A stretch of 64,000 nt of DNA from the NCBI GenBank assembly GCA_918797485.1, contig CAKKNE010000001.1, positions 3,596,001 through 3,660,000 of the forward strand, given 5' to 3'. A program made the position numbers and the translations under genes. The DNA is from Pelagomonas calceolata. Taxonomy: Eukaryota; Sar; Pelagophyceae; Pelagomonadales; Pelagomonadaceae. The notes beneath the pieces were generated by a model that made no database searches, was not told the origin of the DNA, and saw nothing but the letters and a program-made list of their open reading frames with translations. Every line of letters starts with the position of its first letter. Position 1 is the first letter of the stretch. Below are positions 25,450-59,779 of the stretch, in pieces.

Positions 25450-26191
25450 TTACCCATACGCGTTCGACGGCGCGGAGCGGTGGAAGTGCACGAGGCGCCA
25501 GCGGCCGAGCGCCGCGTCCGAGGCGGCATCGCACCTTCTCCAGACGCGGGTCTCCTCGGTCCGCGTCGTCGCCTGTGTGGAAATCAACCAGTTGTGTCGG
25601 GTGCACGCGATGACGCGGCCTTGCTGGCTCCGTCGAGCGTGAGAGACCCACCCCGCCACGCCATCGAGCAGGCGTCGCGTCGATGGCGTGGAGGTCGACG
25701 CGACGATTCAGCAGAACGCGCCGTAAAAATTTGATTTCCACACAGGTCGTCGCGCGGCCCCGCTGCTGCAACCTTACATAGGTCACCACCGCGGCGTCGC
25801 CGAAGACGCGGTAGCGCGGCTCGACGATCGTCGAGGCACTCGCGGGTTCGCCGCCCGCCTCGAGCTCGAAGTAGTACTTGTGGAAGGCCTTGCCCGTCAC
25901 GAGGTGGCCGCAGGCCTCGGGCTCGAAGGCCGTGACGCCGTCGTCGACGAGGACCGAGTACGTCAACTTGTCTCCACTTTGTATCGCGTCGAGGAGGCGT
26001 TGATTCACAATCTCCAGGTCGCGCACGTCCTGCTGGTCGCGTAGCTGATCCGCGGCGCCGATGGGCGACGGGACCGCCGGCACCGTGGCCTCGGGCGCGC
26101 GCGGCACCGGCCGCGGCGGCGTGTCGACGAGGCGCGGCGCCTGCGCCGTGCCCGGCGGCGGGAACGACGAGAAGCTGTTCGCGAAGGACAT
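25450..26191 (-). CDS. CaMKII-association-domain protein (SnoaL/NTF2-like fold), split by an introner
   Basis: Two exons, 26191-25742 and 25572-25450, give a 190-residue protein. It has a Pro-rich N-terminus, then an association domain of the CaMKII type (an NTF2-like fold that oligomerises): LEIVNQRLLDAIQSGDKLTYSVLVDD, HKYYFELE, AVVTYVRLQQ. After the intron it continues with EETRVWRR and GRWRLVHFHRS, the classic C-terminal signature. Reading straight through the intron gives an unrelated Arg-rich end, so splicing is needed to restore the domain. No kinase domain is present. The donor is CTGT|GTGG and the acceptor is CACACAG|GCG. Confidence 0.85.
25573..25745 (+). mobile_element. Introner element, copy 1 (173 bp)
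   Basis: Terminal inverted repeats CTGTGTGGAAATCAA and TTGATTTCCACACAG bound the element. It is flanked by a perfect 8-bp target duplication, GTCGTCGC, at 25565-25572 and 25746-25753. It lies antisense to its consensus orientation within the association-domain gene, and the intron removed is 25573-25741. It is a non-autonomous DNA-transposon-like intron with no coding capacity. It is the longest of four copies here. Confidence 0.92.
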
Positions 26192-26791
26192 CGGTGTGCT
26201 GCTGCGAGCTGGGTCCGCGGCCCTGTGCTGCTGAGGCTTGTTGCTGATACTATAAATGCAATCGGAAGCCTGGCACACGAAAGCTCGTCGAAAGCGTGAA
26301 CAACAGCTCGTCGTCGCCTCGAAAATGTGATCAATGCGAGCGCCACCTAGCCTTTTTTGCAAGCCTCTCCAAGGCCAAGCTCTCAAGGCCAGCAGAAGGC
26401 CAGCGGACGGCGTTTTGTGTCGCCCGATGGCTCCCAGAGAGGGCATACGGCTCTGGAACGCAGTGAAAAACCGTCACCCTAGTGTCTTTGCGACGCTAGC
26501 CTCGTCGGCGACCGAGTCCAAAAAGGCCATATTACGCGGTCAGCTACCGCGTGCTGAGGCCATCGAGCAGCGCCAGACCTCTTGAGACAAAGCGCTTGCA
26601 GCGCCTGTCTCGAAAGAGCCGCTCGCACCACAGCAAGCGCGATCGCCGGACCTCCTCTCATTTGAGAGCAGCGCCAGCGACCGCAGAGCACACCCTCGAG
26701 CACTCGTCGAGCGCTCGGGCCCGCGTCAGCGCCCGTCCGGCGGCCCGCAGTAGCGGCAATCCGGGCGAAGCGCGGGACGCGGTAGAGCACA
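26192..26791. other. Divergent intergenic region
   Basis: This 600-bp region lies between the association-domain gene (minus) and eIF3c (plus). It holds the CTAG motif at 26479-26499 and no supported gene. Confidence 0.45.
26479..26499 (+). promoter_or_regulatory. Intergenic CTAG-motif, copy 8 (weaker)
   Basis: It reads CTAGTGTCTTT-GCGA-CGCTAG on the plus strand, 293 bp upstream of the eIF3c start and in its direction. It keeps both CTAG ends and nine of the first ten core bases are exact, with divergence in the middle. Confidence 0.45.
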
Positions 26792-29700
26792 ATGTCTCGT
26801 TTTTGGGCCGGGGACGACTCCGGCAGCTCCTCGGCCGAATCCGATTCGGGTTCCGAGAGCGAACAAGAAAAGAAGGTCCAAACCAATCGCTGGGCGGCTG
26901 TGAGCGACTCCGATTCATCCGATGAGGGCGAGCGCGTCGTCCGAAGCGCCAAGGACAAGGCCTGGGACGGCATGAAGGCCGTGGTCAGCAAGATCTCGAA
27001 CGCGCGGAAGATTAATGATTGGCACGAGATGCAGACGCAATTCGACCTCTTGAACAAGCAGGTGGACAAAGCTAAGACCCATATCCAAAAGGAAGGGTTA
27101 CCTCGCTTCTACATCCGCACCCTAGCTGAATTGGAGGATTCTCTGGATGTCGCCCTCAAGGACAAGGAGGCCCAGAAGAAGATGAGCAAGGCGAACGGGC
27201 GCGCTCTCAATAGGATGAAGCTGCAGCTCAGACGCCACAACAAGGAGTTCGAGGCCAAGATTACGGAGTACCGGGCGAACCCCGACGCCGAGGAGGAGTC
27301 CGCATCTTCCTCCAGCAGTGAAGAGTCCTCCTCGTCGGAAGACGAATCGTCGTCTGACGAAAGTTCTGATGAAGAGTCCGTAGAAGAAAAGCCGAAGAAA
27401 GTGCAGAAGAACCTCGAAGACATGGACTCCGACGACTGGGCCTCGTCCTCGGACGAATCGGAATCATCGTCGTCGGAAGACGAGGACACCGGCGAGCTCA
27501 AAGGTAGAGCTAGATGGCTCAAGCGCACCGTCACGACGACGAAGCGAGTCAAGAAGGAACGCGTGATCGAGAAGAAGAAGGAGAAGAAAGTTATCGAAGA
27601 GGTGAAGAAGGACAAGAAGGGCCTCGTGTCGTCGTTGCGATTGGACGCCATCCAGACGGGCGCCGACTTCGACAAAAAATTGACGGAAGTGATGGCCGCT
27701 AGAGGCAGGAAGGGCACGGACCCGCGCGACCTGAAACAGGCCCTCGAGGTGCTCGCGAAGGCCGCCCAGGAGAAGTTCGGGTTTCATCGGGAACTGCAGT
27801 GCTGCATGCACCTCATCGCGAGTCATTTCGACAGCAACCGCACGATCGACGACTACATGGACGTGCCGACGTGGCGGGCCTGTCATGGGCAACTCACGAA
27901 GGCCTGTTCGATCCTCGAAGCGCATCCCCAGGCTACGCTGGGCACCGTGGACGACGATGAGCTTGCAGATTTGGCATTGGCGGCGATGCTGGTGCTGACT
28001 CAGAGCAAAAAATGAGCTTCAACGTGACGTGGTCGCGGCGATGGCGTCTTCATGAGACCGCACCGCCTCGACGCCGTCGATGCGCCTCGTGAGAGTAGTT
28101 TCGTGACGGTGTCGTTCCCACACAGGCCAAGAAGAAGAAAGGGGCTGTTGAAGAGGAGCCCGAGGAGGAGGAGGAGCCGAAGGAGGTCATTGATACGGAG
28201 GCGCCTCCTGATGAGGCTGGTTGTGTCAAGGTCGTGGGTAACTTATTGACGTATGTGACTCGCCTCGAGGACGAGTATGTCAAGTCGTTACAACACATCA
28301 ACCCGCACACGCAGGAGTATGTAGCTAGGTTGAGGGATGAGAGACCGCTGGAGGAACTCGCTGGTTCCATCCAGGCTTACTACGATAGAAGTGGTAGTAC
28401 GGAGACGGCCGCGACGGTGGCACTGTTGCGCATAGAACACATGTACTACAAGCACGATAGTATCGCGGAAGCTGTCCGAGATGCGCAGGCGTTCCGGGCG
28501 GCCTGGGGCTCTAGGGACGACGTGCACGCGGCGTCGCGCAAGGCGACCGCCGGCGTGTCAACTGTGGAGAAGTCACACCCGGGTTCTTGGCTCGGCGCGC
28601 CGACGACGCCTTCCACCGATAGTTGTGATACGGCCAAGTCCCTGAAGGAGCTGTGTGGTTATGTGTATGATCATGGCGACGACCGCTGCCGCACGCGAGC
28701 GTTACTTTGTCATGTGGCCCACCACGCGCTGCACGGCCGCTTCCACGCCGCGCGCGACTTGCTATTGATGTCTCACCTCCAAGAAGTAGCGCATGATGCT
28801 GATATAGAAACTCAAATCCTCTACAACCGGGCCATGGTCCTCCTCGGGCTGTGCGCGTTCCGGTCGGGCTTGGTCCACGACGCCCACTCGTGCCTGGCCG
28901 AGATCTGCTCGTCGCGGGTGAAGGAACTGCTGGCCCAGGGCGTCCAGAGCGCGCGCTGGTCCGACAAGAGCGACGAACAGGAGAAGGCCGAGCGCCGAAG
29001 GCAGACGCCCTACCACATGCACGTCAACCTGGATTTACTTGAATGTTGCCATTTAACTTCAGCAATGTTGTTAGAAGTGCCGGCGATGGTCGTCGAGGAG
29101 GCTAGGAACAAGCAGTTGCGCGGCGCGCCGCCGCGCACGCGCGTGACCTCGCGCCACTTCCGGAAACACATGGACATCTTCTCGCGACAAGTCTTCACGG
29201 GGCCGCCCGAGAATACCAGAGATCACATCCTCTGTGCTGCCAAGGCTCTTGCGTTAGGCGACTGGCGCGAGTGCGCGCGACTCGTCGTGGAACTGGACGT
29301 CTGGGACCTCATCCCGGGCACGGGCGAAGCGGAGAAGGTCAAGGCCATGGTGCGCGAGAAGATCAAGGCCGAAGCTTTACGCACTTATTTGTTCGCGCGC
29401 GCGGACGCGTACGACGCGTTGTCCCTAGAACGCCTGTGTGCCACGTTCGAGATGCCCGAGAGAACGGCCCACGGTCTGGTCTCCAAGATGATGATCACGA
29501 AGGAGCTGCGGGGCGCCTGGGACCAGCCGACGAAGACGATCGTGCTCCGAAGACTCGAGCCGTCGCCGGTGCAAGCGTTGGCGCTGGCCTACGCCGACCG
29601 ATGTGCTGCCTTAGTGGATGCGAACGAACGCCTCCTCGACGCGCGCGCGGGCGGCAAGGGCTACAAGGACGACCGGAGGGACTGGGACCACGAAAACGGG

Positions 29701-29895
29701 GGCAACAAGAAGAACCGCTGGGGCGGCAGAGGTGGTAGAGGCGGCGACTACGGCGGCCGGGGCCGGGGGCGCGGCCGGGGCAAGGGCCGGGGGCGCGGCC
29801 GCCGCGGCTCGAACTCGAACTACGTGCAGCGCAAGTACGGGAACAAGAAGTACGGCGACCAGGACCGGCGCGCGGCGTCGGCGCGCCGCTGGTAG
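26792..29895 (+). CDS. EIF3C: Translation initiation factor eIF3 subunit c, two exons
   Basis: Exon 1 (26792 to about 27991) begins MSRFWAGDDSGSS, the conserved eIF3c start, then has the acidic Ser/Glu-rich N-terminus and the middle domain. Exon 2 (28126-29895) carries TYVTRLEDEYVKSLQ, HTQEYVARL, LLCHVAHHALHGRFHAARDLLLMSHLQ and the C-terminal PCI domain, ending in a Gly/Arg-rich tail. Together they make about 989 residues of the scaffold subunit of eIF3. The acceptor CCCACACAG|GCC is clear. The donor is uncertain: the only in-frame GT before the stop at 28012 is CTG|GTGCTG at 27992. The family is certain; the exact junction needs a transcript. Confidence 0.93.
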
Positions 29896-30529
29896 GGCGT
29901 TCCGATTCCTTCCCTGGCGCGTAAGGCGGGGTTCACTCTTAGACCTAACGACGAATCTCGGATTTACGCGAGCCTGAGGGTGGTCACGATGGATCTGAGA
30001 GAGGGGAGGGGGTGAACGCAGTCGCGCCGGCCCTGAGGACCGACACGAGGTGGGGATGCGTGGGGAATGTCGCGCGTCTTTCGTGACCCAGATGACGACA
30101 GTATCGCCCGAAGGATTGACGAGAAGCGGCGGCGTCGGAAAGCCCGCCGACTGTGAGGCCGGCGGGCGGTGGAGGCGTGTTGGTGCGCACGGCAAAATCG
30201 CCTACCTTCTTTTGCGCTCTGTTAATCTTCACTGGCAGCATGCAATTTTTCATTTTTGCCCTGCTGAGGGATCGGACAGCTACTAGCAGTCTTGGCCCAC
30301 CCCCAGTAATCGTCCGACGCGCGGCGACGCCTGCCTGCGACGCGCGGCGGCGAGTCCGCCGCGTCCAACGCCACGTCCGCTTGGACCCGAGGGACCGAGG
30401 CCGAGTGGGAGTCCGCGCCAGGGTGCAGTTTACGCACAGCGTAATTTACGTCCTATCCGCGTGAAATGCTTCAAGCATGCCGTGCTACACAGAGGGCTCC
30501 CCGGGGCCGAAGTGAACAAATACTATGTG
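29896..30529. other. Convergent intergenic region
   Basis: This 634-bp stretch is tail-to-tail between eIF3c and the YHS gene. It includes a GC-rich inverted repeat with arms CGCGGCGG/CCGCCGCG near 30340-30362. Short open frames on both strands have no recognisable product. Confidence 0.4.
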
Positions 30530-31981
30530 TTACCAGCAGTACGCCTTGTCGACGGACGCGTGCAGCGCCGTGGTCGTGGCGGGGCACGCGTCCCTCAAAC
30601 TCGAAAAATGAGCGGACAAACAAGACGAGCAGTCGTCGAAGACCCCGACCGCGTTCGCGCCCTGCACCGCACCACATTTATCATCAAGGGCCGCCAGGCA
30701 GCCCGCCTCGATCGTTTTGGCGGGCGTCGCGTCGTTTATCTGTTGCGGTTGTAGCGTGCACGTCCGCGCGACCGGCGGGCCGTAGTTTTGGGACGTGCAG
30801 TCCACCGACACGGGACCGGTTAAGTCCCCATCACCGTACCAGGCGGCCCAGCGCTCGTCCGCTCTCTGTCTATTAGTCTCGAAGTCGTCCAGGAACGCGG
30901 CCATCACTTCGGGCAAAAATGCGAAGTAGAGCCTACCATCTCTGATGATCCAGTTCTCTACCGACGTCGGCGGTCCCATGACGTCGGCGGCCCAGGGCCA
31001 GCCCTCTTCTGGCGCGGCGACGTCCATGCCCACCGTGCCGCCCCATTCCTCATGATCCGGACCGCGCTCGAAGGCCATCCCATAGGAGCAGAAGCCGCCG
31101 TAGGCCGGTAGGTACTTCGCGGGGTTCGCCGCGAAGGTGGCTCGAGATAACGCTGAAGCGAAGTGGAAGGTCGATTCATAATTGTTCCCTCGATCGTCAG
31201 TGGTTGTTAATTGAAACGGGTACTTGGAGGAGCCCTCGACGGGAGAAGCACCTTCCTCCAAGGAAAAGAACGCGACAACATCCACGCCGCCGACGGCGGG
31301 CACGCCCTTGTCCGTTCTAAAACATTGCGTGTTGTACAGCTCGCCCGAACACCGCGGCGCCGCGACCAACAATTCCCAATTCTGCGACGCTTTCGCCATG
31401 TTCGCCGCGAAGTCCCGCCCGAACAACCGCAGCGCTTCGGGCCCCCGGAAGACCAGCAACTGGCCATCATGAATGAGCCACTGGTCGGGGTCTGTACCCA
31501 TGGCCTTCAGGTCCTTGACCGACAGACTTCGCTGGGGCATCTTGGCGTCGGAGCCCGTCAGCGCGAAGGGGCAGAAGCCTCCTAGCAAGGGGGCGAACGT
31601 TTCCGGCGCTTGCATGAATAGATCCCTATTTTTTGTGGATGAGAACCAGAACCGGAAGCCATTGTATTCAGCGACGATGTCGGGCTTGCCCTGGATTGCT
31701 CTAGATCCTGTTTGCAGTGATCGGTAGGCCACGACGTCGGCGCCGCCCAGGACTGGGCTTTGGGCTTCATTGCAGAACTCGGCGATGAAGCCGCCTTCAT
31801 TATTACATTGCGCTTGCGCTTTCATGGACATCACTTGCGTGGTGTTTGAAAGAGCTAAAAGGGAGAGGCTCCAGAGGGCCACAAAAGCTCCCGCTGCTGC
31901 GGCCCGCCGTCTCACATAAGGTCGCCGCGCTGGTCTAGCTGCTTCCGGCGCGTCGACGGCGCCGTAGAGGTGGGCGTCCAT
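30530..31981 (-). CDS. Membrane-anchored protein with two YHS-like domains and Cys-rich C-terminus
   Basis: This 483-residue protein has a basic N-terminus and one hydrophobic segment (AAGAFVALWSLSLLALSNTTQV, about 29-50), so it is secreted or type II anchored. Two YHS-like modules follow. The first is GGADVVAYRSL, FRFWFSSTKNRDLFMQAPETFAPLLGGFC (about 78-140). The second is GGVDVVAFFSLEEG, STFHFASALSRATFAANPAKYLPAYGGFC (about 226-300). The C-terminal 110 residues hold ten Cys, which suggests an oxidised lumenal domain. YHS modules often bind metals such as copper; that role is inference. The tandem pair indicates an internal duplication. Confidence 0.75.
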   Translation of the reverse strand: MDAHLYGAVDAPEAARPARRPYVRRRAAAAGAFVALWSLSLLALSNTTQVMSMKAQAQCNNEGGFIAEFCNEAQSPVLGGADVVAYRSLQTGSRAIQGKPDIVAEYNGFRFWFSSTKNRDLFMQAPETFAPLLGGFCPFALTGSDAKMPQRSLSVKDLKAMGTDPDQWLIHDGQLLVFRGPEALRLFGRDFAANMAKASQNWELLVAAPRCSGELYNTQCFRTDKGVPAVGGVDVVAFFSLEEGASPVEGSSKYPFQLTTTDDRGNNYESTFHFASALSRATFAANPAKYLPAYGGFCSYGMAFERGPDHEEWGGTVGMDVAAPEEGWPWAADVMGPPTSVENWIIRDGRLYFAFLPEVMAAFLDDFETNRQRADERWAAWYGDGDLTGPVSVDCTSQNYGPPVARTCTLQPQQINDATPAKTIEAGCLAALDDKCGAVQGANAVGVFDDCSSCLSAHFSSLRDACPATTTALHASVDKAYCW

Positions 31982-32626
31982 CGTTTAGCTGTCGAAATAG
32001 CTCGCTTTCGCCGCTGGGGGCTGCCTCGGGGCAGCGTCGCCCTCGTTTTACGAGCTCGCGCAGCCCGAGTGCTCGTAATCGAAACGAGGGAAATACCCTA
32101 GTTACAGGCGCGGCGCGCGCGAAGAAGATGCGAGAAGGCCCTCGCCGGCGCCGCCGGGACGGCGAGACGGGGAGGGTGCCACCCGTCCAGTCGATGGCGC
32201 CAATGGGATGAGCGTGCGCGGCTCCGGCGGCCGCGCTCGGCCGGGACTCGCGCTTGCGCAAAGCCACGTCTGCCCAGGCTTGAGTATGATTCGAATTCAA
32301 TGCAGCCGTCGGTTTTGTTTCGATGCGCAGTGCTAGTGTTGCGACACACTAGCTCCTGCTTTTGGCAGTCTGGCTGCTGCTCTGTCGCTGCCACAGCACT
32401 GATTCGCTTTCGTCGTGGCATCGTTTTGCACTGCTGCGACAACTGTCCGAAAGCGCCGCGGACAGCAAAAGCAAAACCGCACGCGTGCGACCCAATAGTG
32501 TTGGTGCTCTCAGAGTGCTCAATTGAACAAGCTCGCGAAGGCATCGAACGGTGCAAACAAACGCGTTGCAGAGCCTCTGTGGAGCCCTGGCCTCGTGCCC
32601 CGTGAATCTCAGGAGCAATAACAAAA
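31982..32626. other. Divergent intergenic region
   Basis: This 645-bp region lies between the YHS gene and the MATE transporter. It contains a palindromic variant of the CTAG motif at 32333-32352. No gene is supported. Confidence 0.45.
32333..32352. promoter_or_regulatory. Palindromic CTAG-motif variant, copy 9
   Basis: CTAGTGT-TGCGAC-ACACTAG has perfect 7-bp inverted arms. It looks like two CTAGTGT half-sites facing each other between two divergent genes, which fits a bidirectional arrangement. Confidence 0.45.
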
Positions 32627-34033: not shown

Positions 34034-34196
34034 CTTATTTGTCCGTGTGGTCTCATCGATTTGCGATCAGTTCCATTGCTAGGACTATACTGGCGAGGAG
34101 ACTTAGAGTACTCCCCGGCGGGTTCGGTGGCGTCGTGCGCACCGTGTGGATTGTGCAAGCGAGCGAGAGGAGGGGTAAACAAGGGGAACAGTTTTT

Positions 34197-36946: not shown

Positions 36947-36956
36947 GTTGTTGTAT

Positions 36957-42806: not shown

Positions 42807-45800
42807 TTAAGTACCCGTCACCCTGTCTTTCCATTCCTCCCCCGTGATGCCCTCCCGGAAATATGAATGGGCCGCAACGAAGCCCGCGGGCGGTCCGTGC
42901 CTAAAGGGCCGGTCCCCCAGGTTCACGGCGCACGCGAAGCCGTAGCCTCCCGTCACCGCCGGCGCGAGGCCGTTCTCGGGCATGGTGATGCCGCGGAACG
43001 CGACGCCGTCGGGGCCGCTCCACACTCCATTCAGTGCGAAGGAGAGGTCGCCGCGCGCTAGGTCCGCCGCGCATCCGATGACGTCGCCGTCGCGCCACTT
43101 TCGCGCCGTCCGGTACGGCGTATCACCGCCGGCCCATTTTTTCAAGCGGATGCCGTCAACGCCCCATGAGACCTGGTCGTCGCCGACGCCGTCGCCGGAC
43201 TCCTGGTCGCACCGCACGACGGTGCCGATCCAGCCCAGCTGGACGACCCCCACGCACCGCTCGATGACGACCTCGAAGAAGACGCGCGCGTTCCGCGGGG
43301 CCCGGGCCCGTTCTGCGCACAACCTGTGTAGAAATCAAGATTTCACGGCGCCTTCGTGCTGACATGTCACGTCAACCTCAACGCCATCGACGCGACGTCT
43401 GCACACCCGACGCACTGGTTGATTTCCACACAGCGCAAAACGTGTTAAACCCGACGAAGCTGCACCGATGGTTCTCTTCACCGACGGTCGACTGCGTCGG
43501 CCGGCCGCGCACGCGCTCGAGGGGGCACCGTTCTAACCGAACCTGACGGCGGGCCCGTTTCCGTTCCACGGCGACCCAGCGGTCCGAGGAGTACGCCGTG
43601 AGATTGGCGTCGGTCGAAAGCACGCCCTTGAGGTCCGCGGCCGTACATATTTCCCCTGGGAACAGTGCGGTCGTCGTCGCGCCGGCCGCGAGGAGGATCC
43701 GGGCGCAGGCGCAGTGGCCGCCCGTCACTGCATGCGCGAGCGGCGTGACGCCGCAGCAGTCCCTCGCCTCGACGGACCCCTCGGCGCTCAGCAGCAACCG
43801 CAACACGGCCGAGTTGCCGTGCTGCGCTGTCAGATGCACGGCCGTCCGCCCGTCTAAAGCAGAAGAATTCGTCGACGCCCCGTGCCGCAGCAGGTGGTGC
43901 GCCACGCGCGCCGCGCGCCCTCGCGCGTCGGACGCGTGCCGCGCCGCGCCGGCCTCTGCGGCGATCATGAGCGCCGTCCTACCGAGGTCGTCGCGCATCT
44001 CGACGCACTGCGGCTGCCGCCGCACGAGCACGCGCGTGACATCAGCATTCGCCCCGTAGGCGGCGTTCATCAGCGGCGTGCAGCCGTCCTCGGCGTCGGC
44101 GCGCGACGCGTCGGCGCCGTGGTCCAGCAGGATCTCAACTACCAGAGCGTGGCCGCAGAGCGCCGCGACGCCGAGGGCCGTGTCGCCGTTCCTGTCCTTC
44201 GCCTCGACATCGACGCCTCTTTCTAGAAGGAGGAAAGCGCATTCTGCTCGGCCCTGGCTTGCCGCACACAACAAAGCCGTGTAGCCACCTCCGTCCTTGC
44301 GCTGGGGGTCCGCGCCGCGCTCCAGTAATAATGAAGCCACCTCCCTGGATCCGTGGCAGCACGCCGCCATGAGCGCGCTCCAGCCGTCGCCGAGGCAGCC
44401 ATCGACGTCGGCGCCGTGGTCCAAGAGCAACCGCGCGACCTCGACGTGGCCGTAGTTGCACGCCGCCAGCAGCGCCGTGTAGCCGTCGGCCGTCGCGTCG
44501 CCCACGAAATCTGTGGAGACGCCGTCGAGTAGTAATGCGGCGACGTCGGCGTGGCCGTCCTTGGCGCAGGCCATGAGCGCCGTATACCCATCTCGTGTCT
44601 TCGCTCTTCTATTCGCACCCCGCTCCACCAAAATCTCGCACACGTCCGCATGACCGTTCTGCGCGGCGAGCATCAGGCCCGTCCAGCCTTCATCATCAGC
44701 ATAAGCCGGGTCGGCGCCGGCCTCGATCAGGACGCGGGCCACCTCCGCGAACCCCGAGAACGCCGCGGCCTGGAGCGCCGTCGCGCCGTTCGCGCCGCGG
44801 ACCGTGCTCCGCAACGCCGCGTGGCGACATAGCAGGGCCAGCGTCTCCGGCTTGTTGGCCCGCCCCGCGGCCCGCAGCACGCAGACGCCGCGCGCATCCG
44901 TCCGCGTCGCGTCGCCGCCGACCCGGTCCAACAGGAACCGGCAGCACACTGTGGAAGGCGCCTGCACGGCGGCGTGCAGCGGCGACGAGGGGAAGCCCCG
45001 ACCAGTCGGGTCGCAGCTGAACTCGTCCACGAGAGCCGCGACGACGGCGACGCGGCCCGCGCGCGCCGCCGCGCAGAGCGCCGCGAAGCAAACCTTCGCG
45101 AAGCGCGCTCGCGCCGGCGCGTCGGCGTCGGCCGGGGCCTCGAGCGTCGCCCGGTACGGTTCCAGCCGCTTGGCCGCCCACTTTATCTTCCTTTTCGGAG
45201 GGAGCCGCCCCTCCGTGGCTTCGTTCTCCACGTAGAGCTCGCACGCGTCGAGGAGGTCACGCTGCCGCGCGGTGATGTGAAAGACGGGCGTGGACCGGAA
45301 GCAGCGCAGCCAGTTGTCGCCCGCGCTCTCGTCGAGCGATCTCGTGGTCGCGGCGCGCTCGGAGGGGAGCAGCGCGGCCGCCTGGGCGAGCACCGATGCC
45401 TGGTGGCCCGTGGCGCAGCAGGTGTACCTCGAGGCGCCCCTCCTCGCGAGCACGCGCGCACACTCCGCGCGGCCCTCGCGCGCGGCCCGGTGGACGATGC
45501 CGTCGTGGCGCTTCGCCGACACGGGCGTGATCAGGTCGACGCCCCGCGCCGTCCCCAGCTCGTCGAGGAACGCGGCGCAGCCCTCGGTCGCCGCCGCGCG
45601 GCACAAGGCCGCGACACCGCACCGCACCGCGCGGCGGACGCGCCACCGGGCCACGACTAATGGCGTGGCGGCCTCCGCCCGCCGCCACGCCTCCGAGTTC
45701 CGCGGCGCGCCGACCGCGACGAGCCGCACGGCGACCGACGACGTGTTGTCCTGCGACGGTCGTACGACCTGTGTTGAAATCAACCAGTGAGTTGGATGAT

Positions 45801-47038
45801 ATCGCGTCAATGGCGTGGGGCGCCTGAAATTATATGATTTCCACACAGTTCATGACAGTGCAGGGCCGCGTCGACGCGCCGCCGTGCTCTTCGCAGAGTA
45901 AGACGTGGTCGCCGGCCGCGAGGGGCTTCGCCGCCGCCGCCAGCGCGTCCAGGTACTTGCCGCGCGCCTCCGACGCGGCGGCTTCGAACGCGTAGAGCTG
46001 CGGCAAGCGGAACGAGCGCTTCTGCCACCGCGACGACGCGTAGGAGCCCTTGGGGCCCGCCAGCAGCTCTGCGGTGCGCTTGCGCGCAACGAGCGCCGCG
46101 AGCAAGCGCGGATGCGCCACCTCGATGGTGTCGTCGCCCGCGGCGGCGAAGGGCGGGGCCTGGCCGCGAAGGGCGAGCTCGAACCACGCGCGCGGGTCGG
46201 CGCCCCGCCGCGACGCGCGATCCTGGCGGCTCGCGGCGGCCGAGCGCGGCGCGGCGGCGCAGGCGCGCCGCACGGCCTCCAGCGTCATGCGGCCATCCTC
46301 GACGTCGGCCGCCGCGGCGCCCACGGCGAGGATGAGGTCGAGGGCCTGGCACAAGGGGACGTCCAGCGCTTCGGCCGTCCGCCCGCCCATCTCGTCGAGC
46401 GCCGCCGCGAGAGCAACGAGCTCGTGCTGCAGGCGGTTGCCGTCGGACGCCTGCTGGGCCGTGGTCTCGAGGGCGAGGCGCCGGACCACGCGGCGCGCCC
46501 GCGCCGCCGGGCCCAGCTTCGACGTGTCTAGAATGAGCACGCCGCAGTCGGCCAGCGCGTCCGCGGCGCCCGTCGCCACGACGCGCACGCCGGGGGGCGC
46601 GGCCTGCGGCCGGTAGAGCCCGCCCTCGGTCGCTTCGAGTGCGACGTTCGCGTGGGTCCCGTCCGCCGCCTCGATCACGACGAGGCGTCGGTCCGCAGCC
46701 GCCATTGAGAGCTTCCGCCGCGACGCGTGGGACCTCACCAGAGACGCCAAGGGCTGGGCCTCCGTCGCTGTCGTGAGCGCCAATTTCACAGGCGTGCGGG
46801 CCGCCTCGGCGCACGTCCTGGACGTCGCGTCGAGCGCGGCCAGCGGCGCCGCGCACCCGCACCACTCCACCAGCTGCGCCACGAGGTTGAAATGCGTCGC
46901 GTCCCTGGTGAGGACGCGCTCGAGGCAGGCGGCGCCCGGTTTTGTCGTGGGGCGTTTGTTGCTGGCCGCCGGTTCCGCGCGTGTGCTAGCCGCTGGTGCG
47001 GGCTCGCGGCGCTTGCGTGTGCTGGGTTTGCGGGCCAT
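42807..47038 (-). CDS. Ankyrin-repeat and SPRY-domain protein, three exons separated by two introners
   Basis: Exons are 47038-45845, 45768-43430 and 43323-42807, total 4050 nt for 1349 residues. Both junctions keep frame (phases 0 and 2). Exon 1 holds an F-box-like segment near residue 60 (VAQLVEWCGCAAPLAALDATSRTC) and a helical domain. Exon 2 holds a long ankyrin array; typical units are GYTALMACAKDGHADVAALLLDGV, GWSALMAACCHGSREVASLLLERGADP and GNTALGVAALCGHALVVEILLDHGA in style. Exon 3 is a complete SPRY domain (FEVVIERCVGVVQLGW, GDVIGCAADLARGDLSFALNGVW, GLAPAVTGGYGFACAVNLG). If read without splicing it breaks into three apparent genes whose edges are translated transposon sequence. The likely role is a binding scaffold or ubiquitin-ligase adaptor. 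Confidence 0.87.
43324..43433 (-). mobile_element. Introner element, copy 2 (110 bp)
   Basis: Ends are CTGTGTAGAAATCAA (plus strand left, one substitution) and TTGATTTCCACACAG (right). The flanking 8-mers are CGCACAAC and CGCAAAAC, a target duplication with one mismatch. The element lies in sense orientation to the ankyrin-SPRY gene. The intron removed is 43324-43429, with donor CTGT|GTGG and acceptor TACACAG|G. Confidence 0.9.
45769..45848 (+). mobile_element. Introner element, copy 3 (80 bp, minimal)
   Basis: Ends are CTGTGTTGAAATCAA and TGATTTCCACACAG with only about 50 bp between them, including the family core CGCGTCAATGGCGTGGGGCG. Flanking 8-mers match at 4 of 8 positions, so the duplication has decayed. 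It lies antisense to the gene. The spliced intron is 45769-45844, only 76 nt. Confidence 0.85.
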
Positions 47039-51409: not shown

Positions 51410-51448
51410 GGACCCCTGTATTTACTCAGGCTAGTACTTTTAGTACAC

Positions 51449-53206: not shown

Positions 53207-53662
53207 ATTTTATCTGTGCTTTGCGCGCGCTGCGGCGATGCGCTAGGGCCGTTACCGGTCCTTACTGGTCGAGGCCCGTCGCACGGCAGCGGTTTTAGGC
53301 TGCACTGAGGGGACCGCTGTGCCGCTGGCTAACGCTGAAGGTTGCGCTCTTCAGGATTTCTGCGACAGCGACAGGCGATCTCTTTTTGTCCACCACTGGT
53401 CTTGAAACGAGCACAGGAGCGGAGCTTGCACCCTTTGGCAAGCGCCGCGCCGATAATTAGCTAGCGGTCTGTAAGACACTAGCAAGGACCTCTCCGAACC
53501 GCTCTCGTCCTTGACCCAGGACTCGGAGGCCATCCAACGCGACCCCAGAAGCCTCTGGGAAGATGGTTACTGCACACACAAAATGTATCTTCTCAATTTC
53601 CTGAGGCGAGGCAGCCCTCCCATCGACGTAGCAGCAGCAGCTTTCTGCGTGTTGGTGGCACT
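53207..53662. other. Divergent intergenic region
   Basis: This 456-bp region is head-to-head between the unknown minus-strand gene and the polyketide synthase gene. It carries the CTAG motif at 53461-53482; no gene is supported. Confidence 0.45.
53461..53482 (-). promoter_or_regulatory. Intergenic CTAG-motif, copy 12
   Basis: On the minus strand it reads CTAGTGTCTTAC-AGA-CCGCTAG, 255 bp upstream of the start at 53206 and pointing toward it. It is a full consensus match. Confidence 0.6.
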
Positions 53663-55093
53663 ATGGACACCATGGAGACCATCGAGGTGGCCTCGGGCCT
53701 CTCCATCGAGCTCAAGCTTTGCGTGGCAGCTATCGTCGTGCTCGCAACCATGCTTGTGCTGACAATGGTGAGTTTCCCTTCCCAGCCCAGAGAGGCAGCC
53801 CGACCGCTGCGCACGCGGCACAACGCACGTACTGACGGTGCAGCACGCACACACACCGCACCAGACGCCGTCGACGCACTTTACCACATTCTATCGCGCG
53901 CGCGCGCCTGACGTGACGTGACGTGACGTGATATCGCGCAGGCCGCCCCGAAGAAGGAACAAAAGCTCATCCCCACCATCATGGGCATGGCCACGGGCAA
54001 CCCGCCCTACCGCGCGAGCCAAGAACAAGCTTTGCAGGTCGCCGAGAGCTGCCCCGAGTGCACGTCCATCAAACCGGTCCTCGCGCGCATCTACGGCAAT
54101 TCCAGAATTGACTACCGCTACATGGCCGTGCCCGACTTCACGCCGGAGCAGCGCTTGGAGGGCGACGACAACTTCTTCGACGACGACCTGAACTTTCGCA
54201 TGCCCGTGGAGAAGAGACTGGACAAGTTTAGGGAGGTCGCCGTGCCGCTCGTGACGGACGTGTGTGCTAGAGCGCTGAAGGACGCCGGCGTGCAAGCTAG
54301 CGAGATCGGGAAGCTTGTGGTTGTTTCTTCCACTGGTTTCTTGGGCCCGGGCCTGGACTGCTCGCTCATCAAGACCCTCGGACTCGAAAGGAGTGTCGAC
54401 CGTTCACTCATCGGCTTCATGGGCTGCGCGGCGGCCATGAACGGGTTTCGGGTGGCGAACGACTACGCCGCGTCGCATCCCGGCAAATTGGCTCTCATGG
54501 TCTGCGTCGAAATTTCGTCGGTGCACACGACGTTTGATGATAACGTGAATGATGCCATCTTACATGCGATCTTCGCGGACGGCTGTGCTGCTGCGGTGAT
54601 CAGTGGAGAGAAGCCCGGCTCCGCCAAAGCCAAGGGCAAGTTCGGCATCGTCGACACGCACGGCTGGCTCATGGAGGGCACCGAGGACGGCATCACGCTG
54701 TCGATCAACGAGAACGGCATCTCGTGCATCCTGTCCAAATACCTACCGCAGTACATCGCCAAGAACATGGGCGGCTACGTCGAGTCCTTCCTGGGCATGC
54801 ACAACCTCCAGAAGAGCGACATGGACTTCTGGGCCATCCACCCCGGTGGGAGGCGGATCATCGAGGAGGCGCAGAACGGTTTGGGGCTGTCCGAGGAGCA
54901 GGCGAAGTACTCCTGGAACGTGCTGTCGAACTACGGCAACATGCTCTCGCCGTCCGTGATGTTCGTCCTGGAACTGATCCTGAACGACCACAAGAAGGCC
55001 CTGGCGAAGGGTGAAAGAGGATTGAAGCAGGGCATCGCGTTCTCGTTTAGCCCCGGCGTCGGCGCCGAGGGCGTCCTCATCAAGGTCATGTAG
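53663..55093 (+). CDS. Type III polyketide synthase (chalcone-synthase superfamily) with N-terminal membrane anchor, two exons
   Basis: Exon 1 (53663-53767) encodes a membrane segment (LKLCVAAIVVLATMLVLTM). Exon 2 (53942-55093) continues in frame with AAPKKEQK and the enzyme, total 418 residues. The donor ATG|GTGAGT and the acceptor GCGCAG|GCC are canonical; the 174-nt intron carries a TGACG microsatellite. The catalytic triad of the superfamily is visible: C197 in GFMGCAAAMNG, H335 in WAIHPGGRRII and N368 in YGNMLSPSV. The enzyme condenses malonyl-CoA onto a starter acyl-CoA; the product is unknown. The anchor suggests placement on the ER or another membrane. Starting translation at 53981 instead would remove the anchor. 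Confidence 0.9.
53912..53932. repeat. TGACG microsatellite inside the PKS intron
   Basis: Four tandem copies of the pentamer ACGTG/TGACG end about 10 bp before the acceptor. The repeat occupies the branch-point region, so length change could affect splicing. Confidence 0.6.
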
Positions 55094-55241
55094 TCGTCGT
55101 CGTTTCCCGTTTTCCCTTCCACGACTTAAGATTACGCTGTATCTCGGACAGCCGCGGCGGCGATGGCGTTTAGGGTTACTTTAATCTTAGTACACGCGCG
55201 CGCTAGGAGTCTTGTCCGGTGCGGCGCACCGGACGCCGCGC

Positions 55242-55490
55242 TCAGAGCCCTTCGAACGGGTCGCTGCTCGGCGCCTTGTTCATTGCTGATGGTGTCGGCG
55301 GCGCGTCGGACGCCATCGCGGCCATCGAGCCCTCCTTGGGCGCGGTTTGTGGCGCGTCCTTTTTCATCTGCTCGAGGCTCGCGAGGACGTCGTCCTCCGT
55401 CACTGATACCTTGTTCACTCTTTGCGCTGGTTCGGCCGGCTTTTGCACGGCGGGCGCGGCCATGGCTTGGAGGAAATCGCTGCTGGACAT
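55242..55490 (-). CDS. Small 82-residue protein ending in DPFEGL
   Basis: A short frame starts MSSSDFLQAM, is rich in Ala, Pro, Ser and Met, and has one helix (VTEDDVLASLEQMKKDA). It ends SSDPFEGL. A DPF tripeptide can bind the clathrin adaptor AP2, but a single copy is weak evidence. Codon bias supports coding. No family is recognised. The 148 bp between this stop and the polyketide synthase stop hold the two 3' ends. Confidence 0.5.
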   Translation of the reverse strand: MSSSDFLQAMAAPAVQKPAEPAQRVNKVSVTEDDVLASLEQMKKDAPQTAPKEGSMAAMASDAPPTPSAMNKAPSSDPFEGL

Positions 55491-55970
55491 GCTTGTCGTG
55501 TGAGAGGTTCAGATCTTTGGGCTGCACTTGACTGTGAGATGCTTGTGTCGCGTGCGCCGCTCAGAGCCTGTGGGCTGCACTCGTGTGTGCGGAGGTTACG
55601 CGTGCTGTGGGCTGCTGTGCGTGGTTGCAGCTGCTAGGCGTGATCGATGACGAGCAATGCTGGCGTCGTCTGGCGTTGGGTGTCCTTTTACGTCTCTTTT
55701 AGCCACGTTTTGCGCAACGCACCACTCTCAGGACGAGCTCTAGTGGGTCGATACGCTAGCACAACAACCGTTTCAGGCGTCGCCGCACGACGTCGTGTCG
55801 TCGCTGGACGCCTGCAGGCGTCTGTTGTTACGTCTCCGGCCGACGCTCTCAATGAGCACAGCCTGCAATCTTGGACGCTGGGGAACGTGTAGGTGCGTCT
55901 TGTAAGGACGTTAGCTCGATCATACGTCGCTATGAACCCGCATTAACGAGCCCTGACGAAAAACGCAGCG
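55491..55970. other. Divergent intergenic region
   Basis: This 480-bp region lies between the small minus-strand gene and the CRAL-TRIO gene. A CTAG-motif relative (CTAGTGGGTCGATACGCTAG, 55740-55759) lies 211 bp upstream of the plus gene, in its direction. No gene is supported. Confidence 0.4.
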
Positions 55971-57209
55971 ATGCGCGCGATCCTAGCCCTGCTGCTCATG
56001 GTGAGCCAAGCTGCAGCCCTGCAGACGCCAGGCCGCAGCGCGTTGCGGCTAAGGGGAGGATCCGACGAAGTGGTCCAGCAAGAGCAGACCAACGCCACGA
56101 GGTCGGACTACGTCGTCAAGGGCACCATCGGCGCCGCCGGCACGGGCGCGCTCGTCTGGGGTGCGAAAGCAACACTCAATTTCTTGGGACGGCGGCGCGC
56201 TGCAGAAAGGCGGCGCGCGCGGAGCATTGCCGTGCGCGCGCGGCGTTTCTTACGAAGCGGCCTCGCCTTCACGAAAACGGTCTCGACACGCGGGAAGACG
56301 GTCGCGGCGCACTGCACAACGCGCTGCACAACGCTGGGCGCGCGCGCGTGTGCACCACTGTATGATTGCGCGTCGACGTACGCCGCGCGGAGCTGCCTTC
56401 TTACGTTGCGGGTGGCCGAGTTCAACAACCGCACCGCGTCGCGCTTGTTTGCTTTCATCAATACACCAATAAAACCGGCCACGGCCCGGAGCCAACTGAA
56501 AGCTGTATTACGACAAGAATTGAGGATGCGCCCTTCATTATTGAGGGACGCTCGAAAAGGTAAATTGGCCCTCGACGACGCTTGTTTAGAGAGATATCTG
56601 GCTGCGGCGAAATGGAGCTTAGATTTTCCCGATAGACCCGTCGTCGACGCCATCGGCGCCACGGCGGCCTGGCGCGCTTCCACAGTTGCCGCGCGCGCGC
56701 CCGACTCCATTCGCGCAGAGCCGGCATGGCGACGGTTTTTTTGGAGTGCTGGCGTGAAGACGCGGCGGAAAGAAGCGGTCCTCGTCCTGCACGCGAGGCA
56801 CGCGGTGGATGCGCCCCTCTCACATTTGATAAGAGTGATAGAAGGAGGCTGTCGCTCTACACAACGCGCCTGTGTCGTCTTAGACGCGCGCGGCGCGCCG
56901 TCCTCATCATTATTTGACGTCGCGAAGAAGATGCAGAAGGCTTTACCGGTCTTCCAGGCGCACTACCCGGGGCGGTTGGGCCGCGTCGTCGTGTTGGAAG
57001 GTGGACGGCCCGTTTCTCTGATATGGGGCGTGCTCTCGAAGCTTTGTGATGAGGAGGCGAAAGCTCGCATCGCTTTCGTCGACTCGCTGGACCAATTGGA
57101 TGCAATTGTCAGTGTCGCCGAGCTGAACGGGCGAGATGCGGTCTTCGCGGAGACGTCTAGGCTGGCTCAGGAATCACAGGCGGAGGCGCCGCACACGCTC
57201 TACCTCTAA
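55971..57209 (+). CDS. CRAL-TRIO/Sec14-like lipid-binding protein with signal peptide
   Basis: This 412-residue protein starts with a signal peptide (MRAILALLLMVSQAAALQTP) followed by the phrase SALRLRGG. A basic helical region (about 70-110) precedes a Sec14-like domain: a CRAL-TRIO-N helix set with DDACLERYLAAAKWSL (about 200-216), then ACVVLDARGAPSSSLFDVAKKMQKALPVFQAHYPGRLGRVVVLEGGRPVSLIWGVLSKLCDEEAKARIAFVD (about 290-360), which includes the lipid-exchange gate region. Such proteins carry phosphatidylinositol or other lipids. Secretory or plastid routing is inferred from the leader. Confidence 0.78.
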   Translation: MRAILALLLMVSQAAALQTPGRSALRLRGGSDEVVQQEQTNATRSDYVVKGTIGAAGTGALVWGAKATLNFLGRRRAAERRRARSIAVRARRFLRSGLAFTKTVSTRGKTVAAHCTTRCTTLGARACAPLYDCASTYAARSCLLTLRVAEFNNRTASRLFAFINTPIKPATARSQLKAVLRQELRMRPSLLRDARKGKLALDDACLERYLAAAKWSLDFPDRPVVDAIGATAAWRASTVAARAPDSIRAEPAWRRFFWSAGVKTRRKEAVLVLHARHAVDAPLSHLIRVIEGGCRSTQRACVVLDARGAPSSSLFDVAKKMQKALPVFQAHYPGRLGRVVVLEGGRPVSLIWGVLSKLCDEEAKARIAFVDSLDQLDAIVSVAELNGRDAVFAETSRLAQESQAEAPHTLYL

Positions 57210-57275
57210 TAACACATGTTTTACTAGTATTCCGGACGCGTCGTCGGCGCGCGGGCGGACGCCGTCGACGCGACC

Positions 57276-58598
57276 CTAGATCTCGTCCGTCGCGTCCTTC
57301 TTGGTCGTGACGATGTCCTCGGCGTCGTCGTCGGCCGACTTCGCCAAAAGCATCAACGCCTTCTCCCGCATCTCCTCCTGGCGTTTCTTCTGCTCGGCGA
57401 GCTTCTCTCGGCGAATGCGCTCGGCCTCCAAAGCTGCCTCCTCCCGTTTCAAAGCGATGGTCTCCTTGACGCTCTCGACATACGTGTTGAGCTTCACCGC
57501 GAGTCTGACAGCAAAGGCCGCGTCGCGGTCCTGCGTGCGTCTCGCAGCATCCTTCGCCTTCTCGGCCAAAGCAAACTCAATACATTCCTTGAAGGTCATG
57601 CCGTTGTTCTGGTTCCAGTCGCGCGTGTCGCGCGTGCCGTCGGGGTATACTAGTGCTCCCGAGCCGTTGATCTTGCCTGCACTGAATCTACCGATGAAAC
57701 TATATCCAGTAGTCGGTGATGTGAGTTCGCCTCGCCCGTGATATTTCCCTCGGTACCAGTCCCCGACATAAGTAACACCCGACGGTTGGATGAGCGTACC
57801 CTCGCCGTGCCTCTTCCCCTCCTTCCACTGGCCGTCATATATCTGGCCCGTATGGTAGGTCATCTTGCCCTCGCCGTCGGGCTTGCCGAAGCGCCAGTGG
57901 CCCCGGTATACCGTACCGCCGGGGTACTGCGCCTTGCCCTCGCCGTGAGGTTTACCGTCCTTGAAGACACCGACATACAAGCACCCGTCCGCAAACTTGT
58001 ATCTACCTCCCCCATGAGGCTTGCCGTCCTTCCACAGGCCATCATAACTGTAGTGATGCTCGTTGCCTTCGCTGTTCAGGACATTGTTTCGCGGTGGCGC
58101 TAAGCCGGGCGGCCCGTGCTCCTCCTTCTTATATCCAATGACCCACTTCGGCGTCACCAAGGGTTTGAACGTCTTCCCTTTAGCCCCTTCCTTGTCGGGC
58201 GACAATTGAGCGGCTAACGCCCCTAATGAATCCTTCACCTCCTTGAGCTTCATCTCCTCCTTCGACATGACTTCTTTGGTCGGTCGATTGTACTGGTCGA
58301 ACTTTCGCGCTTTTATGAGATTTTGGTAGATGTCGTCCGAGACCGCGCCGTGCGGCATCCGATCCGACGCCGTAGAATCTTTGATGTGATCGAGATGCTT
58401 CTTGCGCGACGTGATGCCGGCCTTCCGCATCAGCGTCCTATATATCCTCTGCTTCTTCTCCTCGGCTTTCCGTTTGGCCCTTTCTTCCTTGCGCCGGCGC
58501 TCGGCGTAAATTTTTTGCGCAGCTTCCGTCATGGACTCGGGCTCGTTGTCGAGGTCCGCGGCGAGGGCCGCCTGGGCCCGGCGCTGGCGCTCGTTCAT
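57276..58598 (-). CDS. MORN-repeat protein
   Basis: This 440-residue protein has charged coiled-coil ends flanking seven MORN repeats at about 190-345. Examples are YDGLWKDGKPHGGGRYKFADG, YVGVFKDGKPHGEGKAQYPGG, YRGHWRFGKPDGEGKMTYHTG and YDGQWKEGKRHGEGTLIQPSG in style. MORN proteins often link membranes to cytoskeleton or flagellar structures. The start is ATG at 58598, facing the small membrane gene. Confidence 0.88.
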   Translation of the reverse strand: MNERQRRAQAALAADLDNEPESMTEAAQKIYAERRRKEERAKRKAEEKKQRIYRTLMRKAGITSRKKHLDHIKDSTASDRMPHGAVSDDIYQNLIKARKFDQYNRPTKEVMSKEEMKLKEVKDSLGALAAQLSPDKEGAKGKTFKPLVTPKWVIGYKKEEHGPPGLAPPRNNVLNSEGNEHHYSYDGLWKDGKPHGGGRYKFADGCLYVGVFKDGKPHGEGKAQYPGGTVYRGHWRFGKPDGEGKMTYHTGQIYDGQWKEGKRHGEGTLIQPSGVTYVGDWYRGKYHGRGELTSPTTGYSFIGRFSAGKINGSGALVYPDGTRDTRDWNQNNGMTFKECIEFALAEKAKDAARRTQDRDAAFAVRLAVKLNTYVESVKETIALKREEAALEAERIRREKLAEQKKRQEEMREKALMLLAKSADDDAEDIVTTKKDATDEI

Positions 58599-58919
58599 GG
58601 TGCTTTTATCGGTGCCGGTGCTGTGTCGTGGGCATGGTGCTGGGGCGTCCTTTCATGGCCCGGGCGCGCGGCGGCGGCGGTCCGTGGGCGTTTGTAATGC
58701 GCCTGCCGAGCTGTGTTGGCTGCCCCGGGCAGCGGTGGCGCCGAATGAGCGGTAATTGAGCGCTGTTGGCCGCTGTTGGGCAGCTCCCAGCACAGCGCAA
58801 ACTGGGCAGATATTGGGCAGCCTAACCGATCTAAGCGCCCGCACGCACGCGCAGCGTAAACGAGGCACCGCACCCGTTCTCTGGCACCGCGCCCGGCGCC
58901 GCCGCCGCCGCGCCGCGCC
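58599..58919. other. Divergent intergenic region
   Basis: This 321-bp head-to-head region contains a short repeated phrase, CTGTTGG followed by GGGCAG, several times between 58760 and 58822. No gene is supported. Confidence 0.4.
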
Positions 58920-59402
58920 ATGCGGCGCCTCCTCACCGTCATGCTCCTCATGACAGCCCATGCGCAGACGGACGCGCCGACGCCCCGACCCCAGACCCCA
59001 CCGACGGACACGCCGCGGCCGACGCCATCGCCATCACCTAGGCCGCGCAACTGGACGCCGTCGCCCACGCGGTCGCCGAAGCCGACGCTGCCGCCGACGT
59101 TATCCTTTTCGCCCACGTTCGCGCCGTCGCCGGCACCGTCCGTGTCGCCGTCGGCGGCCCCCTCACCGCACCCGACGCCCCAGCCCCAGACGGCCGCGCC
59201 GACGCAGAAGCCGATTCCCGAGAAGTTTCCGTTTTACTTCACGGTCGCTGGTGTGGAGGTCATGAAGACGCAGATCACGTTCCTGAACTCGCTTTGTGCT
59301 TGCGTCTTCGTGGGCGGGACGCTGCGGCATTTGTATGATAGTTTATGGCGGCCGAAGATGTCGCTCGTCGAGGGCGGGCTGCGGAGCAACCGGCGGTTCT
59401 AA
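58920..59402 (+). CDS. Signal peptide, Pro/Ser/Thr stalk, and membrane segment; may be the 5' exon of a larger gene
   Basis: The 160-residue frame begins with a signal peptide (MRRLLTVMLLMTAHAQ), then about 85 residues of Pro/Thr/Ser mucin-like stalk. After that come FYFTVAGVEVMKTQITFLNSLCACVFVGGTLRHLYDSLW, with one membrane helix, and a short basic end. The stalk composition suggests heavy O-glycosylation outside the cell. The downstream exon at 59780-60293 has two more membrane helices. A GTATGA donor-like site lies at 59332, so both could be parts of one gene. Confidence 0.6.
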   Translation: MRRLLTVMLLMTAHAQTDAPTPRPQTPPTDTPRPTPSPSPRPRNWTPSPTRSPKPTLPPTLSFSPTFAPSPAPSVSPSAAPSPHPTPQPQTAAPTQKPIPEKFPFYFTVAGVEVMKTQITFLNSLCACVFVGGTLRHLYDSLWRPKMSLVEGGLRSNRRF

Positions 59403-59672
59403 GGCTTTTGTTTGTGTGTGTGATTCTTGTGGTTTCTTCCGTTGGCCGGCCGCGTTGGGTTTCTCTGTAGCGTAGGATATCTCGTAGGACCGCCGGCCGC
59501 GCATCGGGCAGCGCACGCTCGCGAGGTCGAAGACGCCGGCGCGCCGCGTCCGTCCGGGATAGTGAGTGCCCTCGCCGAGATCTGGTTTGTGGCGTAGCTA
59601 GGGCTGCGGCAACGCTCCTAGTGCTCCTTCCTAGCGTGCTCTGCTGAAACAGCCTAAGCGCGAGGTCGAGGC
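59403..59672. other. Spacer before introner copy 4
   Basis: This 270-bp stretch has no supported gene on its own. A pyrimidine-rich tract followed by AAACAG at about 59646-59652 could be a splice acceptor. It may be intron or 5' leader of the gene to its right. Confidence 0.35.
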
Positions 59673-59779
59673 CTGTGTGGAAATCAACCAGTGTGTCGGG
59701 TGCGCTGGCTCCGTCGAGCGGTGAGGAACCGGCACCGCCACGCCATCGAACGCGCCGTAAAATTTTGATTTCCGCACAG
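59673..59779 (+). mobile_element. Introner element, copy 4 (107 bp)
   Basis: Ends are CTGTGTGGAAATCAA and TTGATTTCCGCACAG (one change). A perfect 8-bp target duplication, GTCGAGGC, flanks it at 59665-59672 and 59780-59787. Its interior matches copy 1 closely (GTGTCGGGTGC, GCTGGCTCCGTCGAGCG, CGCCACGCCATCGA, CGCGCCGTAAAA), so it is probably among the younger copies. Confidence 0.92.

What the first reader, a model, noticed from the sequence alone, without database searches (positions are those of the whole stretch)
25573..59779. Introner family with one inverted repeat encoding both splice sites
Four elements (25573-25745, 43324-43433, 45769-45848, 59673-59779) share the inverted repeat CTGTGTGGAAATCAA and an internal core. 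Two have perfect 8-bp target duplications and one has 7 of 8. The sequence CTGTGTG holds a GT donor, and its reverse complement CACACAG ends in the AG acceptor, so one terminal sequence supplies both splice sites. Retained bases are 8 (duplication) plus 4 (CTGT) = 12, so insertion followed by splicing keeps frame; this holds at all three junctions that can be tested. Introner elements in pelagophytes and Micromonas are established knowledge; the frame arithmetic here is read directly from this sequence.
Basis: partly seen in the sequence, partly recalled or inferred. Interest (0 to 1): 0.88.

Follow-up and report, generated by a model that had tools for sequence, protein, structure and literature searches.

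The report
Algal introner borrowing its splice donor
Short mobile DNA elements scattered through a marine alga's genes look like ready-made introns that carry only the downstream splice site and borrow the upstream one from the host DNA they duplicate on landing, so the protein should stay unchanged instead of gaining four amino acids as first proposed.

Summary
The four elements are real and belong to a genome-wide family: 1,721 exact copies of the 13-base repeat against 1 for the reversed control, in a 32.4-Mb genome whose size and contig count match Pelagomonas calceolata. They look like introners: mostly 8-bp duplications, both orientations, and frame restored in 73 of 78 same-strand cases.

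The proposed splicing is not supported. Of 103 copies with a confident coding strand, 102 have GT (74) or GC (28) at the start of the upstream duplication; the antisense end has this in 27. So the donor comes from the duplication, the repeat supplies the acceptor, and splicing adds 0, not 12, nucleotides. Homologues agree: the four extra residues are absent from the one close orthologue spanning elements 2 and 3, and 0 of 120 listed proteins show them at element 1, where 26 show the clean junction. The modal intron would be 203 + 8 = 211 nt, near the published peak "around 210"; the 12-nt model gives 199.

This is a known introner mode. The "+12" arithmetic is already published, for an Aureococcus metagenome genome. 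I examined no RNA.

The parts
25573..25745 (-). Element 1 (173 bp), in a minus-strand CaMKII-association-domain gene; predicted intron 25573-25753 (181 nt), GC-AG
   Evidence: Perfect TIRs and 8/8 duplication; the spliced reading finds homologues with the clean junction
25746..25753 (-). Element 1, duplication copy 1 on the coding strand (GCGACGAC): proposed co-opted GC donor
25565..25572 (-). Element 1, duplication copy 2 (exonic, follows the CACACAG acceptor)
25450..26191 (-). Host gene of element 1, 186 aa after removal of the predicted intron
   Evidence: homologues carry PF08332
43324..43433 (-). Element 2 (110 bp); predicted intron 43324-43441 (118 nt), GT-AG, phase 2
43434..43441 (-). 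Element 2, duplication copy 1 (GTTTTGCG): proposed donor
43316..43323 (-). Element 2, duplication copy 2 (GTTGTGCG)
45769..45848 (-). Element 3 (80 bp); predicted intron 45769-45856 (88 nt), GT-AG, phase 0; duplication only 4/8
45849..45856 (-). Element 3, copy 1 (GTCATGAA): proposed donor
45761..45768 (-). Element 3, copy 2 (GTCGTACG)
42807..47038 (-). Host gene of elements 2 and 3, 1,341 aa after removal of both predicted introns (ankyrin repeats, SPRY)
   Evidence: orthologue P0010 (75% identity, 99% coverage) carries ankyrin families and PF00622
59673..59779 (+). Element 4 (107 bp), 8/8 duplication GTCGAGGC at 59665-59672 and 59780-59787; flanks not scored as coding, splicing not testable
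   Evidence: (score -7.4, one stop)

Best explanation
A family of non-autonomous, MITE-like DNA elements that act as introns. Insertion duplicates 8 bp of host DNA. Each end carries the same inverted repeat, so whichever way the element lands the coding strand reads ...TTGATTTCCACACAG at its 3' end: a compact acceptor. The donor is not in the element; it is the GT or GC that happens to begin the upstream copy of the duplicated 8 bp. Splicing at |GY......-element-AG| removes one duplication plus the element and restores the original coding sequence. Insertions whose coding-strand duplication lacks GY are presumably purged. Shown by sequence: family, duplications, GY bias, frame, homologue junctions. 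Inferred: actual splicing, selection, transposase. That TTGAT and TTTCC act as branch point and pyrimidine tract is a guess.
For: 102 of 103 confident coding-strand duplications start GT (74) or GC (28), against 27 of 103 at the antisense end (76 sense-only, 1 antisense-only, 26 both; sign test 1e-21). Strand was called from codon usage outside the duplications. Genome-wide, 1,074 of 1,721 exact TIR ends have GY at the outer end of the adjacent 8 bases and 537 of 1,721 have both GY and RC; if both ends are equivalent (RC alone was not counted) about 94% have GY on one strand, against about 31% from base composition (my arithmetic). Frame is restored in 73 of 78 cases with both flanks coding on one strand. 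In 49 confident cases with mismatched copies, position 2 is better as a donor in copy 1 in 8 and worse in 0 (T/C 5, C/A 2, T/A 1). GT:GC is 74:28 at the sense end against 8:19 at the antisense end (Fisher p 7.8e-5). Phases 51/22/30 fit GY availability per codon phase in 20 window ORFs (p 0.28) and not a uniform spread (p 0.0015). Homologues. Modal length 203 in 21 of 132, so 211 nt, against the published peak 'around 210 bp' (PMC9481584).
Against: No RNA reads were seen. Homologues show the clean coding sequence, but I cannot tell whether they are transcripts or empty-site alleles. One confident case, L121, has TT in copy 1 and GT in copy 2. Donors lack a +3 to +5 consensus: GTRAG in 0 of 103, GTRA in 5 of 103. 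Twenty-nine of 132 elements were dropped as not confidently coding; 25 of these have GY at one end or the other, so part of the GY signal may be insertion preference. In the XRN gene, the two more distant homologues P0004 and P0007 are about 3 residues longer near junction 2. One of the Pfam comparisons favours the +12 reading slightly (23.9 against 23.6 bits), outside the junction.
Confidence: 0.93

Rival explanations
1. One reading: the TIR supplies both splice sites (CTGT|GTGG donor, CACACAG| acceptor), so 12 nt (8 + 4) are added per insertion.
For: Frame-neutral; the GT is present in the repeat; published for an Aureococcus sp. family (PMC9860276 Fig. 2F/G legend).
Against: Does not predict GY at the coding-strand duplication start (102 of 103). 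The four extra residues are absent in homologues (and P0001/P0003). Stop codon in 2 of 103. Predicted modal intron 199 nt, not about 210. Pfam scores drop for three of five genes with the insert (sulfate transporter 50.8 to 45.7, ABC 101.1 to 99.5, XRN 81.1 to 79.4 bits); for PGM the change is 0.1-0.2 bits and for the acyltransferase it is reversed (23.6 to 23.9).
Confidence: 0.03
2. Both donors are used: mainly the duplication GY, with CTGT|GTGG as an in-frame alternative giving a +4-residue isoform, perhaps more often where the duplication offers only GC.
For: The alternative GT is present and in frame in every intact copy; GC donors are 28 of 103.
Against: No database protein with the +4 junction among 120 listed for element 1, itself a GC case.
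Confidence: 0.15
3. The elements are ordinary MITEs that are not spliced, and the GY bias is transposase target preference.
For: Perfect duplications on the coding strand lean towards a palindrome-like GYCGCGRC; 25 of 29 elements without a confident coding call still have GY at one end.
Against: A target preference cannot know the coding strand: 76 sense-only against 1 antisense-only. Frames match across the element in 73 of 78.
Confidence: 0.03

Closest known systems
Introners of Aureococcus anophagefferens and Micromonas pusilla (Huff, Zilberman and Roy 2016, Nature)
   Same: Short non-autonomous DNA elements; one splice site carried, the other co-opted from the duplication, exact removal (recalled; paper not held). 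PMC9860276 says earlier reports show no change in mRNA length; PMC7789003 says A. anophagefferens introners have direct repeats and TIRs of constant length.
   Different: Different species; I could not compare TIR sequences.
Introners of Aureococcus sp. TARA_AOS_82_MAG_00129, family 4 (Gozashti et al. 2022, PMC9860276, Fig. 2F/G)
   Different: There both splice sites are said to be carried and 12 bp added. Here that is tested and not met. The MAG sequence was not seen, so same-family status is unknown.
Introners of Symbiodinium microadriaticum (PMC9860276, Fig. 2B)
   Same: TIRs; [quoted passage not shown]
   Different: 4-bp duplications there, 8-bp here.
Introner elements of Pelagomonas calceolata mentioned in PMC9481584
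   Same: Very probably the same elements: intron-length peak around 210 bp, against 211 nt here.
   Different: The passages seen give only the peak; the mechanism was not in the main-text passages, and supplements were not read.
Amoebophrya introners (PMC7789003)
   Same: Inverted repeats predicted to fold the intron into a hairpin; direct repeats at the borders.
   Different: Mostly non-GT-AG borders and 3-5 nt direct repeats there.

Membership tests
Introner (intron-generating element) | Many near-identical copies spread through genes of one genome | tested here: met
   1,721 exact TIRs, 506 perfect pairs of 30-184 gap; 103 of 132 sampled in confidently coding flanks
Introner (intron-generating element) | Copies are spliced out of mRNA | not testable with these tools
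   No RNA reads available; indirect support from frame and GY and homologue junctions
DNA-transposon introner with TIR and TSD | Terminal inverted repeats and fixed-length target duplication | tested here: met
   8 of 8 identical in 67 of 132, at least 6 of 8 in 111 of 132
Co-opting introner (Huff 2016 mode) | One splice site carried, the other taken from the duplication, no net change of mRNA | tested here: met
   102 of 103 against 27 of 103; homologue junctions. At DNA and protein level only
Both-sites-carried introner (Gozashti 2022 Fig. 2F mode) | Donor inside the element, 12 nt added | tested here: not met
hAT-derived MITE | TIR shared with an autonomous hAT element | tested here: not met
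   The one hAT dimerisation-domain hit lies between TIRs CAGGGCAGCAGAAG with duplication TTGCTCGC; no introner TIR at 3 mismatches or fewer in the 9 kb fetched
MULE- or KDZ-mobilised element | A cognate transposase in the genome | tested here: inconclusive
   MULE: 0 here, control rang in 3 of 14. KDZ: 0 here, control rang in 0 of 14, so not informative. P-element and Merlin families not searched
Introner | Insertion in nucleosome linkers | not tested
   No nucleosome data used

The most novel reading that the evidence does not exclude
The donor is chosen by position and not by sequence: the repeat pair folds the pre-mRNA into a hairpin, and the spliceosome uses whatever GY sits 8 nt upstream of the stem, with no GTRAG consensus (0 of 103) and with GC in 27%. 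The published '+12 nt' mode in Aureococcus sp. could then be an artefact of gene models that accept only GT-AG: where the duplication offers GC, the next in-frame GT is the one 4 bases into the repeat.
Probability: 0.2. Interest if true: 0.65.

Novelty: new member of a known kind. Interest (0 to 1): 0.42.

Why it matters
It replaces an attractive mechanism with the better-supported one, in an alga described by the literature seen here only through an intron-length peak. If confirmed by RNA, a family with hundreds of exact-ended copies, a fixed acceptor and naturally randomised donors is a ready-made assay for how little a eukaryotic spliceosome needs at a 5' splice site: G plus T or C seems almost enough, with GT favoured about six-fold over GC relative to the antisense end. 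It also puts a question mark over the reported 12-bp-adding introners in a related genome.

Tried and rejected
TIR-encoded donor with 12 nt retained: rejected.

Frame arithmetic as a discriminator: useless, since 0 and 12 are both in frame; reported as such.

Autonomous partner: the one hAT hit has other TIRs; MULE and KDZ gave no match (KDZ control silent). The mobilising transposase is unidentified.

Pfam scoring of both models: weak discriminator. Six gene pairs were printed, five were submitted; three favour exact removal, one is flat (0.1-0.2 bits), one is flat with a slight reverse (23.6 against 23.9 bits), its matched stretch lying outside the junction.

Element 1, distant homologues: 89 of the 120 listed proteins (192 found) fell outside my patterns, either not covering the site or too distant; some distant ones (such as P0052, P0053, P0055) have a longer loop there, so only close relatives are informative.

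Hairpin: 39 of 40 randomly chosen confident elements pair at least 10 of 12 terminal bases, mean z -5.2 on 20 shuffles each. Any inverted repeat would do this; not evidence of function.

Invariant AG acceptor (103 of 103): not independent, because the sample was picked for intact repeats.

My subfamily sorting of right ends left 91 of 132 as 'other' and is not used.

U1 snRNA: two matches below the gathering score, C1:553941-554112 and C1:5464782-5464959; their 5' ends could not be read. No Rfam family reached its threshold in the window.

Sample: 132 distinct elements, mostly exact pairs from contigs C1 and C2 with a few from C3, plus neighbours found at up to 2 mismatches. Elements 1 and 4 of the window fell outside the confident 103: element 1 because the 150-nt flank runs past its gene's end, element 4 because its flanks do not score as coding. 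In the frame test 12 of 90 pairs were set aside because the two flanks scored best on different strands.
Full report
WHAT WAS CHECKED. The four elements exist as described. Five of eight ends carry CTGTGTGGAAATC exactly and three have one mismatch. Duplications are 8/8, 7/8, 4/8 and 8/8 in order of position. The loose window count (15 against 8.94 expected, 4 of 100 shuffles reaching it) is weak by itself, but the genome holds 878 + 843 exact copies against 1 + 0 for the reversed pattern and 506 perfect opposed pairs with gaps of 30-184 bases.

WHERE IT IS. The genome has 32,445,274 bases in 8 contigs. PMC9481584 (passages) describes Pelagomonas calceolata RCC100 as six nuclear contigs totalling 32.4 Mb plus a plastid and a mitochondrial contig, and reports an intron-length peak around 210 bp, likened to the introner elements of Aureococcus anophagefferens.

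HOW THE SPLICE MODEL WAS TESTED. For 132 distinct elements I called the coding strand from codon usage of 150-nt flanks, leaving out the duplications (codon table from 31 long window ORFs). Both models (0 or 12 nt retained) keep frame, so the call does not favour either. 103 passed (score over 8, margin over 8, no stop); 29 were dropped. Among the 103, the upstream duplication starts with GT in 74, GC in 28 and TT in 1. The same position read on the antisense strand is GT or GC in 27. By pairs: 76 sense-only, 1 antisense-only, 26 both. A target preference cannot distinguish coding from non-coding strand, so this is a signature of the donor. The whole-genome counts fit: 1,074 of 1,721 exact TIR ends have GY in that position and 537 have GY together with RC at the inner end. 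If the two ends are equivalent, which I did not count separately, about 94% of ends have a usable GY on one strand.

SUPPORT FROM THE DUPLICATIONS THEMSELVES. Where the two copies have diverged (49 confident cases), position 2 differs in 8: in all 8 the upstream copy has the better donor letter. At position 1 there is one difference, in the other direction (L121, TT upstream, GT downstream). GT outnumbers GC 74:28 at the sense end but 8:19 at the antisense end (p 7.8e-5). Intron phases 51/22/30 follow the availability of GY in codons of 20 window ORFs (p 0.28), not a uniform spread (p 0.0015).

HOMOLOGUES. Elements 2 and 3 sit in one minus-strand gene (42807-47038, 1,341 aa after removal). Its orthologue P0010 (75% identity, 99% coverage) aligns across both junctions without the four residues that the 12-nt model adds. 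Element 1 sits in a minus-strand CaMKII-association-domain gene (25450-26191). Of the 120 proteins listed (192 found), 26 show the clean junction, 5 read into an element at exactly this site, 0 show the four extra residues, and 89 do not cover the site or fall outside my patterns; distant relatives vary in loop length here. In a third gene, XRN-like, on locus L024, with a GC-type and a GT-type element, all five homologues covering the first junction lack the four residues (P0006 has one extra), and five of seven lack them at the second; the other two, P0004 and P0007, are more distant (57% and 46% identity) and about 3 residues longer there. I cannot tell whether the clean proteins come from transcripts or from alleles without the element; both mean that removing exactly one duplication plus the element gives the ancestral sequence. 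Pfam scores agree weakly.

LENGTH. The commonest element length is 203 bp (21 of 132). Exact removal makes the intron 211 nt; the 12-nt model makes it 199. The published peak, from gene models built partly on transcripts, is 'around 210'.

ORIENTATION. Elements lie 53:43 in the two orientations relative to the coding strand, 7 unclear; full-length ones 12:13, 1 unclear. Because both ends are the same repeat, the acceptor is present either way round.

WHAT REMAINS ODD. Donors have no usual context beyond GY: GTRAG in 0 of 103 and GTRA in 5. The repeats fold the intron into a hairpin (39 of 40), as any inverted repeat must, and a similar fold was proposed for Amoebophrya introners (PMC7789003, passages). 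Whether the stem helps to choose the donor is open. My sampled elements were picked for intact repeats, so decay of the repeats could not be studied.

PRIOR WORK. PMC9860276 (section 4 read in two parts, section 29, and passages) already lists families that carry the 3' site and co-opt the 5' site from the duplication (Fig. 2B), and an Aureococcus sp. family said to carry both sites and add 12 bp, 4 + 8 (Fig. 2F/G). Huff et al. 2016 is not held and is cited from recall and through others. A search for Pelagomonas with introner found one paper in this library.

VERDICT. A real, large, young-looking introner family; a new member of a known kind. The donor claim and the 12-nt claim are not supported.

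Noticed in passing
L123:3050-6700 (G000:C4:4499549-4503199): A separate hAT-like element: 14 of 14 TIR CAGGGCAGCAGAAG, exact 8-bp duplication TTGCTCGC, and a 721-aa open frame with a hAT dimerisation domain. Its ends differ from the introner's.
   Followed up: partly
window 25573-25745: Five database proteins (P0029, P0030, P0031, P0033, P0035) read into an element at exactly this site, with differing continuations, which suggests that the insertion is shared and diverging, or polymorphic, in related populations.
   Followed up: partly
G000:C1:553941-554112 and G000:C1:5464782-5464959: Two U1 snRNA-like matches, 64.3 and 58 bits, below the 69.5-bit gathering score; could not be read.
   Followed up: no
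window 59673-59779: Element 4 lies just upstream of a plus-strand stretch that reads as a membrane-protein-like frame; it may sit at the edge of another intron or exon. Not resolved.
   Followed up: no
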